A stretch of DNA of 64,000 nucleotides from Algoriphagus pacificus (GTDB taxonomy: Bacteria; Bacteroidota; Bacteroidia; Cytophagales; Cyclobacteriaceae), in the NCBI RefSeq assembly GCF_017254845.1, contig NZ_JAFKCU010000003.1, positions 372,001-436,000 of the forward strand. Direction: 5' to 3'. The position numbers were made by a program, and so were the translations under genes. Numbering within the stretch: position 1 is the first letter of the stretch; every line of letters starts with the position of its first letter. Shown one piece after another: positions 40,357 through 47,416 of the stretch. Below the pieces are notes generated by a model. The model did not search any database and had not been told where the DNA came from. It was given only the letters and a program-made list of their open reading frames with translations.

Positions 40357-40390
40357 AGAAGCACAGCCATCAGGTTTGTGCTTCTTTTTT
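40357..40390 (+). terminator. Terminator of the oxidoreductase/isomerase/DUF6807 operon
   Basis: The stem AGAAGCACA/TGTGCTTCT (40357-40365 and 40377-40385) is followed by a T tract. Confidence 0.88.
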
Positions 40391-40609
40391 TAGGGTCAAA
40401 TAGCTTTTCAGAAAAGGTTTTTCAGTTCTAGACTAAGAATTAATTAATTCGGAGAAAGTATTGTCTTTGAGGATATTCATGATTTATTTTTTAAATTTTA
40501 GGAACTGTTCTTCAATATTTAAATTACTTTATTCAGCACCGCCCAAATAGCCAAAGTCATTTTTAATTATTGAATTTGACAAAGCCCTTTTCCGATTTAA
40601 ACTCAACCT

Positions 40610-43600
40610 ATGTCTATTAAAGTTGCTGTAAGGCATTTTACCCGATACGATTACGATCGTCATATTTCTTTGAGTCCTCAAGTGATCCGCTTGAGACCTG
40701 CACCCCATTCCAGAACCTTCATTAAGGGTTATTCACTCAATGTAAAGCCAGAAAACCATTTCATCAATTGGCAGCAAGATCCCTTTGGAAACTACCTCGC
40801 AAGGATAGTTTTTCCTGAAAAGGTTAAGTTCTTTGAAATCGATGTGGAAGTCATTGCGGATATGGTGGTGATAAATCCATTTGATTTTTTTGTTGAAGAC
40901 TATGCACATGAATTTCCCTTTCAATACGAGGAAAGCCTGAATGCCCAGTTGGTTCCTTATCTGGAGAAAAAAGAAAACGGGCCCTTGTTGATGAAATTGG
41001 TAGGTAAGGTGAAAGCTTTGTTACAGAAAAATATGATTACTGTGGATTACCTGGTTGCAATCAATCAATTAATCCATCAGGAATTGAAATATCATGTCCG
41101 TATGGAGCCGGGGGTGCAATCCTGTGAGGAGACGCTGACTTTGGGTTCTGGATCTTGTAGGGATTTTGCTTGGTTGATGGTCGTTGTCTTACGCTACTTG
41201 GGTTTGGCTTCGCGCTTTGCTTCGGGTTATTTGATTCAGCTTAAATCAGATGAGAAGTCTTTGGATGGTCCGTCAGGTCCTGAAGAGGATTTTACGGATT
41301 TGCATGCTTGGACTGAGGTGTTTGTACCTGGTGCAGGCTGGATTGGGTTGGATTCTACCTCTGGCTTATTCGCAGGAGAAGGTCATATTCCATTGGCTTG
41401 TACTCCAAGTCCTCAGGATGCTGCCCCAATATCAGGGATGGCTGAACCAGCCGAAACCACTTTTCACTTCGTCAATGAGGTAACAAGAATCGAGGAAACT
41501 CCACGGGTAACCAAACCTTATTCTGATGAAACCTGGGAAAAAATAAAGAAAGTAGGGGATATCGTAGACCTTGATCTAGAAGCGAATGATGTCAGGCTGA
41601 CGATGGGAGGTGAGCCAACTTTTGTGTCAGTTGACAATCAAGATGCTCCGGAATGGAATACTGCTGCAGACGGAGAACACAAACGAAGTTTATCCAATAT
41701 TTTATTTCATAAGCTCAAAGGACAATTTGGAAAGGGTGCCCTCATGCAATATGGGCAAGGAAAATGGTATCCTGGTGAACCTTTGCCTAGATGGAAATTA
41801 GCCTGTTTCTGGAGGAAAGATGGGCAGGCAATCTGGCATGATGATTCTTTGATGGCAGATTTATCAAAAGATTACAAACTCAATAGCCGACATGCCAAGA
41901 GCTTCATGAACAACTTGGTTCAGCAATTGAATGTAGACAAGCAAAATATTTCTCCGCTTTATGAAGATCCATTTTATTTCATTTGGCAAGAGGGAAAAGT
42001 TCCAGTCAATATCAACCCAAAGAAATTTAATCTAAAATCCTCTTTGGAAAGACAAAAGCTTGCAGAACTGCTTAACAAAGGCTTGGGGAAACCTGTTGGC
42101 TTTTCTGTCCCTTTGGAATGGGAGTTTAAAGAAGAAAGATGGCAGAGTTGCAAATGGAAATTCAGAAGAGATGATTTATATCTAGTTCCAGGAAATTCTC
42201 CGGCAGGCTTGAGATTGCCTTTGGACTCTATAGAGCAACCAGCAACCAAAGATGAAATTGTCCTACCAGAAAGAGATTTATTTGAGCCAGTCAAAAAGCT
42301 CCCTAAATCATCCAAAAGGTTTAAGGGTAAAAAGCCTCCAATCAATTCCAAAAGGATCTTTAAAACAACTTTGGTAGTAGAAGTTAGAGAAGGTAAATTA
42401 TTTATTTTCTTCCCTCCAACGACTCATTTAGACCATTACCTGGATTTGGTAAGTGCAGTAGAGAGAACTGCCAAAAAATTAAAGATTCCAATTCTGATCG
42501 AAGGATATGATCCTCCTTCTGATATTAGAATAGAGAAAATGATGATTACTCCTGATCCCGGAGTGATTGAAGTAAATATTCAGCCAGCCAAAACCTGGAA
42601 GGAAATCCTGAACAATTATGGCATTCTCTATGAAAAAGCCAGGGAATCCCGGTTGATAAGTGAAAAGTTTAACGTTGATGGAAAACATACCGGAACAGGT
42701 GGTGGAAACCACATCACTTTAGGCGGAACGACACCTGAAAACAGCCCTTTACTGAGAAGACCTGACGTACTTCGCAGTTTTATTACTTATTGGCAGCATC
42801 ATCCGGCTTTATCCTATCTCTTTTCCACTCAATTCATAGGTCCAACTAGTCAGGCACCAAGAGTCGATGAAGGAAGAGATGACATGTTATATGAACTGGA
42901 ATTGGCTTTCCAACAGGTTCCTGATGGTCAGGAAAACGAAATCCCTTATTGGATGGTAGATCGGATTTTCAGAAATCTCTTGGTAGATATCACTGGAAAT
43001 ACCCACAGGGCAGAGTTCTGTATTGATAAGTTGTATTCCCCGGATTCTAGCAGCGGAAGATTAGGGATTTTGGAATTTAGAGGCTTTGATATGCCTCCCC
43101 ATTACCGCATGAGCATGGTTCAACTTTTACTGATCCGAGCGCTGATGAGTTGGTTTTGGAAGGAACCATACAATCATAAACTAGTGCGTTGGGGTACTTC
43201 CTTGCATGATAAATTCCTTCTTCCGCATTATTGTCAGAAAGACATGGCTGAAGTAGTCGAAGATTTGAAAAGGGCGGGTTATGATTTTGATGTGTCTTGG
43301 TTTGATCCGTTTTTCAGCTTTAGATTTCCTTTTATCGGTGAATTACATGCAGAAGAAATCCATATTCAACTGAATATGGCCATAGAACCTTGGCATGTTT
43401 TGGGAGAGGAGATTTCTAGTTCGGGTACAGCGCGATATGTTGATTCGTCTTTAGAGAGATTGCAGGTAAAGATTTCAGGATTGACTGACTCTAGGTATTA
43501 TTTGCTTTGCAATGGCTTTAAAATCCCCTTGAAAAATACTGGGGTGCAAGGAGAATACGTAGCCGGAATCAGATATAGAGCTTGGCAACCCTTTTCTGCC

Positions 43601-43951
43601 TTACATCCAACCATAGGAATTGATACTCCATTGATAATAGATCTCTACGATTCTTGGACCAAAAAATCAGTTGCCGCTTGCCAATATCATGTAGTCCATC
43701 CTGGTGGAAGAAGCTACGATACTTTCCCAATCAATAGTAATGAAGCGGAAGCACGAAGAATTTCCAGGTTTTTTGACTTTGGGCATACAATTACCGCTGA
43801 GAAACCTGTTAATTTGACGGTGAAAGATGAATTGAACACTGGTAGGTATATCACCAAGGTAGACAGTCAGGCTTATTACGATGTGGAAACAGAAATCGTC
43901 AGCCCTGAATTCCCTTACACCATGGATCTTCGTCGCTACAAGAAAAGGTGA
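40610..43951 (+). CDS. Transglutaminase-DUF2126 predicted amidoligase fusion
   Basis: The 1113-residue cytoplasmic protein has no signal peptide. Residues about 1-290 are a bacterial transglutaminase N-terminal beta domain plus a transglutaminase/cysteine-protease core. Its catalytic Cys is in GSGSCRDFAW (about 183), His in DLHAWTEVF (about 230) and Asp in GLDSTSG. From about 330 to the end is DUF2126 (PF09899), proposed from sequence analysis to be a COOH-NH2 ligase. Features include VRLTMGGEPTFV, TGTGGGNHITLGG, RNLLVDITGNTHRAEFCIDKLYSP and LEFRGFDMPPH. It heads an operon with an ATP-grasp/alpha-E protein and a second transglutaminase. The substrate is unknown. Confidence 0.9.
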   Translation: MSIKVAVRHFTRYDYDRHISLSPQVIRLRPAPHSRTFIKGYSLNVKPENHFINWQQDPFGNYLARIVFPEKVKFFEIDVEVIADMVVINPFDFFVEDYAHEFPFQYEESLNAQLVPYLEKKENGPLLMKLVGKVKALLQKNMITVDYLVAINQLIHQELKYHVRMEPGVQSCEETLTLGSGSCRDFAWLMVVVLRYLGLASRFASGYLIQLKSDEKSLDGPSGPEEDFTDLHAWTEVFVPGAGWIGLDSTSGLFAGEGHIPLACTPSPQDAAPISGMAEPAETTFHFVNEVTRIEETPRVTKPYSDETWEKIKKVGDIVDLDLEANDVRLTMGGEPTFVSVDNQDAPEWNTAADGEHKRSLSNILFHKLKGQFGKGALMQYGQGKWYPGEPLPRWKLACFWRKDGQAIWHDDSLMADLSKDYKLNSRHAKSFMNNLVQQLNVDKQNISPLYEDPFYFIWQEGKVPVNINPKKFNLKSSLERQKLAELLNKGLGKPVGFSVPLEWEFKEERWQSCKWKFRRDDLYLVPGNSPAGLRLPLDSIEQPATKDEIVLPERDLFEPVKKLPKSSKRFKGKKPPINSKRIFKTTLVVEVREGKLFIFFPPTTHLDHYLDLVSAVERTAKKLKIPILIEGYDPPSDIRIEKMMITPDPGVIEVNIQPAKTWKEILNNYGILYEKARESRLISEKFNVDGKHTGTGGGNHITLGGTTPENSPLLRRPDVLRSFITYWQHHPALSYLFSTQFIGPTSQAPRVDEGRDDMLYELELAFQQVPDGQENEIPYWMVDRIFRNLLVDITGNTHRAEFCIDKLYSPDSSSGRLGILEFRGFDMPPHYRMSMVQLLLIRALMSWFWKEPYNHKLVRWGTSLHDKFLLPHYCQKDMAEVVEDLKRAGYDFDVSWFDPFFSFRFPFIGELHAEEIHIQLNMAIEPWHVLGEEISSSGTARYVDSSLERLQVKISGLTDSRYYLLCNGFKIPLKNTGVQGEYVAGIRYRAWQPFSALHPTIGIDTPLIIDLYDSWTKKSVAACQYHVVHPGGRSYDTFPINSNEAEARRISRFFDFGHTITAEKPVNLTVKDELNTGRYITKVDSQAYYDVETEIVSPEFPYTMDLRRYKKR

Positions 43952-43991
43952 GAGTTAATAAAGGAAATTGAAATTACTTCAATTAGGAGAA

Positions 43992-46529
43992 ATGATTGAA
44001 TCATATCTTATAGAAAAGATGTTCAATAATGCGCCATTTCTTGATGAAATGGCCACCGATCAAGGAAAAATACATTCCCATTGGGAGCGAATAGCTAAAT
44101 ATTACGAACAGATTGGATCGGAGAAAATGCGGCAGTTCCAGGAGGAAGTCAGCCGTCAGCTTCGTGAAAATGGGGTTACATATAATGTCTATGGGGATCC
44201 AGACGGGATGAACCGTCCCTGGATCTTGGATCCTGTTCCCATGGTTTTCAATTCGGAAGAATGGGAGGGCATCGAGAAAGGTTTGATTCAAAGAACTGAA
44301 TTACTTAACCTGATCCTAAATGATCTCTATGGACCTCAAAAACTTATCAAAGATGGGCTTTTGCCTTTTGAGCTGATTTACAACCATAGAGGCTTTCTGA
44401 GACAAGTTCAGGACATCAAATTGGATGGTGACCAGCAATTGATCCAATATTCATCTGATTTGGCTAGAGGCCCAAATGGTAAAATGTGGGTTCTTCATGA
44501 CCGAACAGATGCTCCTTCTGGGGCAGGATATACCTTTGAAAATCGTGCTGCAATGACTCGTGTTTTTCCAGAACTAATCCGGGAAAATCATGTCAGAAAA
44601 ATCACCTCATACTATCAGACTTTTAAAAACACCTTATCTCACCTTACAAATAATAAGGAAAATCCCCGTGTAGTATTGCTTTCTCCAGGTCCAACCAACG
44701 AGACCTTTTTTGAGCATGCTTACATTTCTTCGTTTATGGGCTTTACGCTTGCCTTTGGAGAAGATCTCACAGTTAGTGGTGGCTATGTTTGGCTTAAAAC
44801 TATAAAGGGACTTGAAAAGGTAGATGTAATTATCCGCCGTGTAGATGATGTGTTTTGTGATCCTTTGGAATTCAAAAATGACTCCCACTTAGGCGTAGTC
44901 GGTCTGATGGAAGCTGTTAGACAAAAGAAAGTTTTAGTGATCAATCCATTGGGATGCAGAGTTCTTGAAAATCCAGGCATTATGGCATTCCTTCCAAAAA
45001 TCTCAAAAGAATTACTTGGACAGGATTTGATTTTGCCTTCTGTTGCGACTTGGTGGTGCGGACAGCCTAAGGAATTGAAGTATGTTTTCGATCATATTGA
45101 TTCACTAGTGATTCGAAATATCTATAGAGGAACGAACCATAAATCTGTTTTTGGAGGTGATCTTACTAAAGAACAGTTGAGTACTCTAAAAAAAGAAATT
45201 GAAAGAAATCCATACATGTATGTGGGCCAGGAGATGGTGGATTTTTCAACTTCTCCTTCATGGATCAACAATAAACTTGAGGCAAGAAATGCTGTTTTCA
45301 GAAGTTATGTAGTTGCCGACTCTGAGAATAAAAGCTATAAAGTGATGTCAGGTGGGCTTTCTAGAAGTTCTCCGGAAAAAGGGGCTTTCTTGGTTTCCAA
45401 TCAAACCGGTGGCATAAGTAAGGACACTTGGGTACTTGGAAAGTCTAAAGATGTGGTTACGACTTTGACCAAGCCGATTAAAGCACAACCTCTGATCCGA
45501 AATGTTTTGCCAAGTAGGACAGGGGAGCGCCTTTTCTGGTTGGGAAGGTATTTGGAGAGATCAGCTTATGCTGTACGACTAATGCGTATGACATTGCTTT
45601 CTTACAATGAAGCCGATGAGGATATTCATATTCATGAAACTCCGGTTTTAAGCTCTTTACTGAGAACACTTACTATAATGACCGGAACAGTTCCGGGATT
45701 TTTGGAAAAAGCCCATTTGATGAACCCCGAGCCAGAATTATTGGATTTGGTTCATAATGTAGACAAACCAGGAAGCATCGCTTATTCCATCCAATCATTT
45801 TTGACAAATGCATACGCTGTCCGAGACCGTTTGAGTTTAGATACTTGGAGGATTTTGGATAGTATATCAGAAGAATTGGCAAAAATGCGTCAGTCTGAAA
45901 ATTCATTGACTAAAGCCTACCAAAGTCTTGACAACATGGTGGTCAAATTGATGGCATTCTACGGTTTGAACATTGATAATATGACCCGGGAGCCAACTTG
46001 GCACCTTTTGAATATTGGTCGATTCATTGAATCAGCCGCAAATAACTGTACCATTCTACGCGGAATGCTCAGCAAATCCTTTGATGTTGAATCCAATAAA
46101 GAATTGATGGAGGATACCTTGAGATGTAATGAAAGCTTGGTAACCTACAGATACCGTTACAGATCCAATCTGGAGATGCATGGGGTGCTGAGCTTGCTAA
46201 TTTTGCATGAGGACAACCCGAGATCTTTGATTTTCCAATTGCTTGAAATCGACTCTCATCTTAAAGCGCTTCCTAACCATGAAGACCATGAGATGTTTGG
46301 TTTCGAAAGGAAAAAGCTTTTGGAAGCAATTACTAAAATCAGACTTTGTGATGTCGATTTCTTATCTACTTCCAATCCGACAACGCATGAATTTGATCAT
46401 TTGACGTCAATGCTGGATCAAATTATTGAATTGCTTCATGACACTTCTGATTTGATCTATGAAAAATATTTCAGTCATACCGGCTCAGGATACAGTATGA
46501 TTCAAACCTCTGTCATCCCTGAAATATGA
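43992..46529 (+). CDS. Circularly permuted ATP-grasp - alpha-E domain fusion
   Basis: The protein of about 845 residues has an N-terminal circularly permuted ATP-grasp (CP_ATPgrasp_1/2: VYGDPDGMNRPWILDPVP, NDLYGPQKLIKDGLLP, VLHDRTDAPSGAGYTFENR, DVIIRRVDDVFCDP, VINPLGCRVLENPGI). From about residue 515 it has the helical alpha-E (DUF403) domain, LPSRTGERLFWLGRYLERSAYAVRL. ATP-grasp enzymes activate carboxylates as acyl phosphates and join them to amines. The two domains are often separate genes; here they are fused. AGGAG five bases before ATG 43992 supports that start, although the frame extends to TTG 43968. The stop overlaps the next start by four bases. Confidence 0.9.
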   Translation: MIESYLIEKMFNNAPFLDEMATDQGKIHSHWERIAKYYEQIGSEKMRQFQEEVSRQLRENGVTYNVYGDPDGMNRPWILDPVPMVFNSEEWEGIEKGLIQRTELLNLILNDLYGPQKLIKDGLLPFELIYNHRGFLRQVQDIKLDGDQQLIQYSSDLARGPNGKMWVLHDRTDAPSGAGYTFENRAAMTRVFPELIRENHVRKITSYYQTFKNTLSHLTNNKENPRVVLLSPGPTNETFFEHAYISSFMGFTLAFGEDLTVSGGYVWLKTIKGLEKVDVIIRRVDDVFCDPLEFKNDSHLGVVGLMEAVRQKKVLVINPLGCRVLENPGIMAFLPKISKELLGQDLILPSVATWWCGQPKELKYVFDHIDSLVIRNIYRGTNHKSVFGGDLTKEQLSTLKKEIERNPYMYVGQEMVDFSTSPSWINNKLEARNAVFRSYVVADSENKSYKVMSGGLSRSSPEKGAFLVSNQTGGISKDTWVLGKSKDVVTTLTKPIKAQPLIRNVLPSRTGERLFWLGRYLERSAYAVRLMRMTLLSYNEADEDIHIHETPVLSSLLRTLTIMTGTVPGFLEKAHLMNPEPELLDLVHNVDKPGSIAYSIQSFLTNAYAVRDRLSLDTWRILDSISEELAKMRQSENSLTKAYQSLDNMVVKLMAFYGLNIDNMTREPTWHLLNIGRFIESAANNCTILRGMLSKSFDVESNKELMEDTLRCNESLVTYRYRYRSNLEMHGVLSLLILHEDNPRSLIFQLLEIDSHLKALPNHEDHEMFGFERKKLLEAITKIRLCDVDFLSTSNPTTHEFDHLTSMLDQIIELLHDTSDLIYEKYFSHTGSGYSMIQTSVIPEI

Positions 46530-47416
46530 AATATCAAGTTATCCATATCACAGATTATATCTACGAGTTTCCTGCGACACTCTGCCATAATCTGATGTTT
46601 CAGATTCCTCAGGATACTGATTTTCAGAAAGTAGAAAAATATGTCTGCGAAATCAGTCCTAAGCCAAGTTCCGAGATGGAAAGAATGGATTTTTTTGGAA
46701 ACAAATACCTGTATTTTTCAGTAGAGCGCTCCCATAAAAAACTGACAGTTACTTCTCAAAGTATTCTGGATTTACAGCAGCCTGCATGGATTGCTATCCA
46801 TCCTAAGGAAACCATGCCTTGGGAGAAAGTAGTTGATTGGCTACATACCGTAGAGGCTACCAATGATATCCGTCAATATTATCTGGAATCCAATCATGTG
46901 CAATTTATTGATGGAGTTAAGGATTACGCTTTAAAATCCTTTACACCAGGTAGACCTATTATGGAAGCTATGCTGGATTTGAATAAAAGGATATTTGATG
47001 ATTTTGCTTTTACTCCAGGATTTACGGATATCAGTACTCCTCTTCAAAAAGTCTTTGAACATAAAAAAGGAGTTTGTCAGGATTTTGCTCACTTTTCCCT
47101 GGCATGTCTTCGCGTGTTAGGATTGGCAGCAAGGTATGTTAGCGGTTATATAGAAACCATTCCACCTCCCGGAAAACCTAAATTGATTGGATCAGATGCT
47201 TCACATGCTTGGATTGCAGTTTATATTCCTGAGCATGGATGGGTTGAATTTGATTCAACAAATAATCTCTTGGTAAATGATAAACACATCCGAGTAGCCG
47301 TAGGAAGAGATTTTGCAGATGTAACTCCTTTAAAAGGCATTGTTTACAGTGGAAGCGAACAAGAAATGAAAGTCAGCGTGGATGTGACCAATTTGGAGGA
47401 AAGCGAAGCCATTTAA
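46526..47416 (+). CDS. Transglutaminase-like family protein
   Basis: The 296-residue cytoplasmic protein has a transglutaminase N-terminal beta domain (YQVIHITDYIYEFPATLCHNLMFQIP). A catalytic core follows with Cys in KKGVCQDFAHFS (about 187), His in DASHAWIAVYIP and Asp in EFDSTNN. The arrangement equals the first 290 residues of the first gene in the operon, so the operon carries two related cores. In bacteria this fold acts as an amidase/peptidase or transacylase. ATG overlaps the upstream stop (ATGA), and the stop overlaps the convergent epimerase-like gene by four bases. Confidence 0.92.
   Translation: MKYQVIHITDYIYEFPATLCHNLMFQIPQDTDFQKVEKYVCEISPKPSSEMERMDFFGNKYLYFSVERSHKKLTVTSQSILDLQQPAWIAIHPKETMPWEKVVDWLHTVEATNDIRQYYLESNHVQFIDGVKDYALKSFTPGRPIMEAMLDLNKRIFDDFAFTPGFTDISTPLQKVFEHKKGVCQDFAHFSLACLRVLGLAARYVSGYIETIPPPGKPKLIGSDASHAWIAVYIPEHGWVEFDSTNNLLVNDKHIRVAVGRDFADVTPLKGIVYSGSEQEMKVSVDVTNLEESEAI

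What the first reader, a model, noticed from the sequence alone, without database searches (positions are those of the whole stretch)
40610..47416. Transglutaminase / DUF2126 / circularly permuted ATP-grasp / alpha-E operon of unknown product
Three same-strand genes (16 bases apart from TTG 43968, then a 4-base ATGA overlap) encode transglutaminase-DUF2126 (1113 aa), ATP-grasp-alpha-E (about 845 aa) and a stand-alone transglutaminase (296 aa). The transglutaminase Cys-His-Asp residues are intact in both copies. DUF2126 has been predicted to be an amide ligase, and the ATP-grasp should form an acyl phosphate, so two predicted peptide-bond makers lie with two peptide-bond breakers or transferases. 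All lack signal peptides, so the target is cytoplasmic. The domains are known from comparative genomics; to my knowledge the product is not.
Basis: partly seen in the sequence, partly recalled or inferred. Interest (0 to 1): 0.75.

Follow-up and report, generated by a model that had tools for sequence, protein, structure and literature searches.

The report
Amide-bond operon with degenerate ATP-grasp
A widespread bacterial gene set, predicted to make and break amide bonds, is intact here, but its ATP-using enzyme has lost the residues expected for using ATP, and an active-looking version sits elsewhere in the same genome.

Summary
The three genes are real and intact and form a conserved unit. 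In 59 of 80 DUF2126 loci the fused ATP-grasp–alpha-E gene comes next on the same strand.

(1) The window's ATP-grasp probably cannot form an acyl phosphate. Of 74 fused copies none keeps the Glu, Lys and Asp that all 16 stand-alone copies keep, and the motif Asn is Arg in 73. Both transglutaminase triads (81/81, 75/75) and the candidate DUF2126 residues stay intact.

(2) An ATP-grasp of the intact type lies in a second operon of this genome. All 17 DUF2126 genomes in the family sample and all 12 in the phylum sample also have a stand-alone alpha-E. One plasmid carries both parts as a five-gene row.

In some proteobacteria the set is nitrogen-controlled (PMC5491218, PMC8050072, passages). Best reading: a cytoplasmic amide synthesis and hydrolysis system whose fused ATP-grasp has become a non-catalytic partner. 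The product is unknown and every catalytic step is inferred. The kind of system is already known from comparative genomics.

The parts
40610..43951 (+). TG-DUF2126 protein, 1113 aa
   Evidence: triad 81/81
40625..40858 (+). Bact_transglu_N domain (residues 6-83)
41045..41353 (+). Transglut_core domain (residues 146-248; C183, H232, D248)
41447..43933 (+). DUF2126, putative amidoligase (residues 280-1108); E654, N656, N700, H701, R751, D753, E754, R756, N797, H799, R800, E802, E822, R824 invariant
   Evidence: 81 of 81
43992..46529 (+). Fused ATP-grasp-alpha-E protein, 845 aa from the preferred ATG (853 aa from TTG 43968)
44238..45368 (+). Circularly permuted ATP-grasp domain, degenerate: H177/R179, P336, T389-K392 and V443 (TTG numbering) replace E/N, K, GGYG and D of the stand-alone type
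45507..46472 (+). Alpha-E domain (residues 514-835)
43985..43989 (+). AGGAG, likely ribosome-binding site for ATG 43992
   Evidence: read by eye
46526..47416 (+). Stand-alone transglutaminase-like protein, 296 aa (C184, H227, D243)
   Evidence: triad 75/75
40358..40391 (+). Hairpin (8 pairs, loop of 11) and T tract before the operon, probably the end of the upstream transcription unit
   Evidence: read by eye; not listed by the scan, which allows loops of 3-8 only

Best explanation
The window carries the accessory half (A) of a two-part intracellular system that makes and breaks amide bonds. The core half (B) is the operon at G000:C12:488016-491368: stand-alone ATP-grasp, alpha-E and transglutaminase-like protein. 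B's ATP-grasp, which resembles glutathionylspermidine synthetase in short motifs, activates a carboxylate as acyl phosphate and joins it to an amine. DUF2126, a predicted glutamine-synthetase-like ligase fused to a transglutaminase-like domain, makes a second amide bond, possibly gamma-glutamyl. The Cys-His-Asp domains hydrolyse or transfer these amides, as the cysteine amidase of glutathionylspermidine synthetase does. The window's own ATP-grasp no longer uses ATP; it is kept as a substrate-binding or partner subunit that carries its alpha-E domain to the B ligase or to DUF2126. In some proteobacteria the set answers to nitrogen limitation through NtrC/sigma54; in this genome the trigger is unknown. 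Shown: gene content, order, co-occurrence, residue loss and conservation. Inferred: each catalytic step, the partner role, and a small conjugate as product.
For: Residue loss in 74 of 74 fused copies against 16 of 16 intact stand-alone ones (25 versus 13 diverse rows); the two types split with support 1.0 and a stem of 1.02. The ATP-grasp part still changes slowly (dN 0.058-0.090, the lowest of four parts in each of three pairs). Stand-alone alpha-E in 17/17 DUF2126 genomes versus 64/131 others in the family sample and 12/12 versus 131/383 in the phylum sample. Both halves in one row on a plasmid and in B. cenocepacia. A Yersinia Anbu-operon ATP-grasp releases phosphate from ATP (PMC6376114, passages). 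NtrC/nitrogen control in B. cenocepacia and P. putida (PMC5491218, PMC8050072, passages); sigma54-like sites in some proteobacterial loci. A ligase paired with a cysteine amidase is the known design of glutathionylspermidine/trypanothione synthetase (PMC11124245, passages).
Against: No biochemistry on any member here. The link to glutathionylspermidine synthetase is by eye: hhalign gave no significant alignment and the residue roles are recalled. The fused copies keep several positions (D154-equivalent 67/74, K/R at K372 73/74, R434 and R452 74/74), so ATP use by altered residues is not excluded. DUF2126 versus GCS2 is not significant (probability 1.6-2.6%), and with the whole DUF2126 region the unrelated Anbu profile scored slightly higher (27.8 versus 27.0). 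No sigma54 site was seen before either operon of this genome, nor before the Enterobacter set. Two loci with 5 kb on both sides lack the fused gene, and 4 of 28 distinct DUF2126 genomes lack it, so it is not obligatory.
Confidence: 0.45

Rival explanations
1. Protein tagging rather than a small metabolite: the ligases attach an amino acid or peptide to proteins, and the transglutaminase-like domains (with Anbu or Peptidase_Mx where present) remove the tag or break the target down, by analogy with pupylation.
For: Published hypothesis for the Anbu operon (PMC6376114, passages). Anbu in 5 of 80 DUF2126 loci and Peptidase_Mx in 5 of 80 (Pfam).
Against: Anbu is absent from this genome by two queries and showed no peptidase activity in vitro (PMC6376114). 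No carrier protein gene recurs beside the set.
Confidence: 0.25
2. The fused ATP-grasp is still an ATP-dependent ligase that uses a changed residue set, so the first reader's reading holds and there are three ligases.
For: Strong constraint on the domain, kept Arg, Asp and Lys/Arg positions, new invariant residues R179, E334, N335, W362, W363, G365 in 25 of 25.
Against: Glu, Asn, Lys and Asp of the intact type gone in 74 of 74 and the GGYG loop not kept.
Confidence: 0.2
3. Mainly a nitrogen-scavenging amide or peptide hydrolysis system; the ligase-like parts are regulatory.
For: Nitrogen-starvation control; intact transglutaminase-like triads; Peptidase_Mx neighbours in 5 of 80 loci and in Caballeronia.
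Against: The stand-alone ATP-grasp keeps the full motif set in 16 of 16, and a relative turns over ATP (PMC6376114).
Confidence: 0.1

Closest known systems
Anbu operon (ATP-grasp, alpha-E, transglutaminase, Anbu; PMC6376114, PMC5666114, passages)
   Same: The genome's C12 operon has its ATP-grasp, alpha-E and transglutaminase; the window's domains are paralogues.
   Different: No Anbu was found in this genome. The window adds DUF2126, fuses ATP-grasp to alpha-E, and that ATP-grasp is degenerate.
NtrC-controlled cluster I35_5080-83 of Burkholderia cenocepacia H111 (PMC5491218, passages)
   Same: DUF404/407, DUF403, TG and a large TG protein; in another strain the same order continues with the fused gene and a TG.
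   Different: One cluster under sigma54/NtrC there; two loci and no sigma54 site seen here.
Glutathionylspermidine synthetase/amidase (E. coli gss)
   Same: Ligase plus cysteine amidase; the stand-alone ATP-grasp resembles it in short motifs (contexts).
   Different: No significant profile match; its amidase is CHAP-type (PMC10318531, passages), not transglutaminase-like; the window's ATP-grasp lacks the motif residues.
rlo operon of Pseudomonas aeruginosa (PMC12239564, abstract and passages)
   Same: An ATP-grasp protein beside a transglutaminase-like protein.
   Different: RloB is a membrane protein with an inactive TG domain, RloC is RimK-like and RloA a secreted aspartic protease.

Membership tests
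TG-DUF2126 / CP-ATP-grasp / alpha-E amidoligase system | TG-DUF2126, ATP-grasp, alpha-E and TG encoded together | tested here: met
TG-DUF2126 / CP-ATP-grasp / alpha-E amidoligase system | Intact Cys-His-Asp in the transglutaminase-like domains | tested here: met
   81/81 and 75/75
TG-DUF2126 / CP-ATP-grasp / alpha-E amidoligase system | Catalytic ATP-grasp in the fused protein | tested here: not met
   Residues absent in 74 of 74; by sequence only
TG-DUF2126 / CP-ATP-grasp / alpha-E amidoligase system | DUF2126 has a glutamine-synthetase/GCS2-like fold | tested here: inconclusive
   Probability 1.6-2.6%; C-terminal part above 40 of 40 controls, but the Anbu profile scored as high with the whole region
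Anbu operon | Stand-alone ATP-grasp, alpha-E and TG in one operon | tested here: met
   C12 operon; not in the window
Anbu operon | Anbu gene | tested here: not met
   None in G000; the same profile rings in 25 of 395 genomes
Glutathionylspermidine synthetase | E/N, K and K of the ligase active site | tested here: inconclusive
   Similar motifs by eye in the stand-alone type, absent in the fused type; no significant alignment
Glutathionylspermidine synthetase | Peptide-amine ligase and amidase activity | not testable with these tools
   Needs biochemistry
NtrC/sigma54-regulated set | -24/-12 promoter upstream | tested here: not met
   None in 300 bases before either operon of this genome; present in some proteobacterial loci

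The most novel reading that the evidence does not exclude
The fused protein is a repurposed ATP-grasp that no longer uses ATP but works as a partner of an active paralogue encoded at another locus. It holds the growing peptide in its old acceptor site (kept R434- and R452-equivalents and RRxDDxFxDP) and, with new invariant residues (R179, E334, N335, W362, W363), directs DUF2126 and the transglutaminase-like domains to build and edit a nitrogen-storage or signalling conjugate not yet described.
Probability: 0.2. Interest if true: 0.8.

Novelty: new member of a known kind. Interest (0 to 1): 0.5.

Why it matters
By record titles the set occurs from Bacteroidota to Methylobacter, Campylobacterales, an Anaerolineales and a Trueperaceae genome, and on a plasmid of a blood isolate of Enterobacter, yet I found no product in the papers I could search. 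The result says which protein to assay for ATP use (the stand-alone ATP-grasp, not the fused one), which genes to delete together (two loci), and where to look first (nitrogen limitation in a proteobacterium). That makes an old open prediction directly testable.

Tried and rejected
DUF2126 replaces Anbu: in the family sample Anbu is rare among DUF2126 genomes (3/17 versus 50/64 of the other alpha-E genomes), but the phylum sample goes the other way (6/12 versus 19/131). Rejected as a general rule. The two counts used different queries (one protein; a seven-row profile).

Citrate synthase as a partner: a protein that I recognise as citrate synthase from its sequence (no family search run) lies beside TG-DUF2126 in 8 loci of three genus labels, between TG-DUF2126 and the fused gene in the loci read in full. 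Taken as lineage-specific.

GspS mapping by hhalign: no significant alignment. The residue match is by eye and the GspS roles are recalled.

Solved structures: the TG-DUF2126 profile found only TG relatives and two marginal hits at E = 0.16; no usable relative for alpha-E.

dN/dS: synonymous sites are saturated (pS 0.75-0.91), so no ratio is given. Phages: one TG-domain hit only. Near copies of the Enterobacter five-gene set: none besides itself in the plasmid collection, none in E. coli genomes.

Rows left out: only fused copies of 800 aa or more and ATP-grasps of 440 aa or more were used, and many rows are close relatives (Algoriphagus, Dyadobacter). In one search one 844-aa ORF with a stand-alone-type score (G235) was not counted as the fused type. 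A tree check was miscoded and one search gave a misplaced support value after rerooting; the split is taken. The 80 loci are the best 80 of 431, so biased to close relatives.
Full report
Observation. The second gene probably starts at ATG 43992 after AGGAG rather than at TTG 43968. A hairpin with a T tract (40358-40391, read by eye) separates the set from an upstream group (Gfo/Idh/MocA, AP_endonuc_2, DUF6807). A convergent aldose-epimerase-family gene overlaps the 3' end by four bases. The genome is Algoriphagus-like: among the 80 loci the Algoriphagus ones are 79-93% identical.

Conservation of the set. A scan of genome contigs with TG-DUF2126 found 431 relatives and returned the best 80 loci. 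The fused ATP-grasp-alpha-E gene (in a few loci broken or cut by a contig end) is next on the same strand in 59 of 80. It lies elsewhere in the locus in 15, is absent from 2 that have 5 kb on both sides, and 4 loci were too short to tell. Where a full-length fused gene is next and there is room, the third gene follows in 52 of 54. Pairwise distances of the three proteins correlate at r = 0.94-0.96 over one locus for each of 23 genus labels, as expected of genes inherited together. Several loci are from metagenome assemblies, whose names can be wrong.

A second operon. The same genome encodes a stand-alone ATP-grasp (478 aa), alpha-E (330 aa) and transglutaminase-like protein (293 aa) at C12:488016-491368. 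This is the core of the published Anbu operon (PMC6376114 and PMC5666114, passages), but without Anbu. The genome's one proteasome-family match looks like HslV from its sequence (HslV recognised from recall). An Anbu protein found nothing at E up to 10, and a seven-row Anbu profile that rings in 25 of 395 phylum genomes, three of the same genus among them, found nothing in this genome. Three of the five transglutaminase-core matches in the genome belong to the two operons. A stand-alone ATP-grasp lies in 14 of the 80 DUF2126 loci. An Enterobacter roggenkampii plasmid carries ATP-grasp, alpha-E, TG-DUF2126, fused ATP-grasp-alpha-E and TG in one compact row with insertion sequences on both sides. 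A B. cenocepacia replicon carries these five and a further TG-like ORF.

Nested distribution. In 148 genomes of the same family (Cyclobacteriaceae by inference) DUF2126 occurs in 17 and alpha-E in 81. The fused form is in 16 of the 17 and in none of the other 131. A stand-alone alpha-E is in 17 of 17 and in 64 of 131 others (Fisher p = 2.6e-5). In 395 genomes of the phylum DUF2126 occurs in 12; 12 of 12 have a stand-alone alpha-E against 131 of 383 others (p = 3.7e-6), and 9 of 12 have the fused form. The window's genome is in both samples, so there are 28 distinct DUF2126 genomes, 24 with the fused form. Genomes share descent, so these p-values overstate independence. Where the fused form is missing, DUF2126 lies near a stand-alone alpha-E (three phylum genomes; L071), so the core seems to be the needed part and the fused gene an addition.

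The ATP-grasp of the window is degenerate. Stand-alone copies (B) keep L-E-D-N, D-D-K, a Lys followed by G-G-Y-G, and V/L-D-L-R-type motifs; the solved relative 3n6x is of this type. In 74 fused copies (A) the Glu is never Glu, the Asn is Arg in 73 and His in 1, the Lys of DDK is absent in 74 and the Asp of VDLR is absent in 74. The first Gly of GGYG is kept in 3 and the second in 20. The 16 B copies are invariant at all of these (25 versus 13 diverse rows). The motifs resemble the stretches of E. coli glutathionylspermidine synthetase around E330/N332, K498 and K533 (contexts printed); the roles of those residues are recalled and the profile comparison itself failed. Other positions are kept in A (R434 and R452 74/74, D154 67/74, K or R at K372 73/74), and new ones are invariant (R179, E334, N335, W362, W363, G365 in 25 of 25; in the larger set the first three are 73, 74 and 70 of 74). 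The A and B types form a clean split (support 1.0, stem 1.02). The domain changes slowly between Algoriphagus species (dN 0.058-0.090). It is thus constrained, not decaying, but by sequence it should not make an acyl phosphate. In contrast the TG triad and the candidate DUF2126 residues are invariant in 81 of 81, and the third gene's triad in 75 of 75.

DUF2126 as ligase. Pfam calls it a putative amidoligase. Against a GCS2 profile (30 sequences) my test gave probability 1.6-2.6%. The C-terminal part scored above 40 of 40 controls (one reversed, 39 column-shuffled; 26.6 against at most 24.3), with GGGNHVTLGG opposite GlHVHiG and LEFRxxDMP opposite LEFRvCDvP. Against this, with the whole region an Anbu profile scored slightly higher than GCS2 (27.8 versus 27.0). 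Inconclusive.

Regulation. In B. cenocepacia H111 four neighbouring genes described as DUF404/407, DUF403, TG and a large TG protein are listed at -6.0 to -9.4 in an ntrC mutant under nitrogen limitation (PMC5491218, passages). In P. putida PP_2685 (proteasome beta) and PP_2688 (ATP-grasp) have log2 changes of 4.4 and 4.0 on nitrate versus ammonium (PMC8050072, passage). In marine metagenomes these domains associate with urea-metabolism domains (PMC3597751, passages). COG3484, a proteasome-type protease that I take to be Anbu, is enriched in predicted sigma54 regulons of proteobacteria (PMC12316311, passages). Of 100 upstream regions scanned here, 19 had a -24/-12-like site at p of 0.05 or less against simple shuffles; the best were in a Pseudomonadales genome, Burkholderia, Methylobacter and Sideroxydans. 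None was found before either operon of this genome or before the Enterobacter set.

Mechanism and verdict. The best reading is a two-locus amide synthesis and hydrolysis system with an intact-type core ligase elsewhere, a predicted GS-like ligase in the window, three transglutaminase-like hydrolases or transferases, and a fused ATP-grasp that has lost ATP use and serves as partner or substrate holder. The ATP-grasp of a Yersinia Anbu operon releases phosphate from ATP, though that work could not tell ligation from hydrolysis (PMC6376114, passages). The product is unknown. The nearest biochemical model is a ligase paired with a cysteine amidase, as in glutathionylspermidine/trypanothione synthetase (PMC11124245, passages). 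Protein tagging remains possible. The kind of system is known from comparative genomics (Iyer 2009, cited by the papers above, not read), and I cannot say whether that paper noted the degeneracy.

Noticed in passing
L190 (NZ_CP116251.1 15034-24225): The five-gene set lies on an IncFII-type plasmid of an Enterobacter roggenkampii blood isolate, with insertion sequences on both sides and an arsenate reductase gene nearby; no near copy in other plasmids or in E. coli genomes.
   Followed up: partly
L053:13545-14849: A protein that looks like citrate synthase (recognised from sequence only) sits between TG-DUF2126 and the fused gene in Methylobacter.
   Followed up: partly
L026:16907-17971: A Peptidase_Mx zinc metallopeptidase with a zinc ribbon is a neighbour in Mucilaginibacter, Spirosoma, an unnamed Bacteroidetes genome and Caballeronia.
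   Followed up: partly
G000:C38:242360-243109: The genome has a second, divergent GCS2-family protein (454-aa frame) besides the typical one on C12.
   Followed up: no
G235:C12:321752-322708: An alpha-E match with a stand-alone-type score lies in an 844-aa open frame in a genome without DUF2126, possibly an independent fusion.
   Followed up: no
L089: The record title names Helicobacter pylori, but it is a metagenome assembly and the label is doubtful.
   Followed up: no
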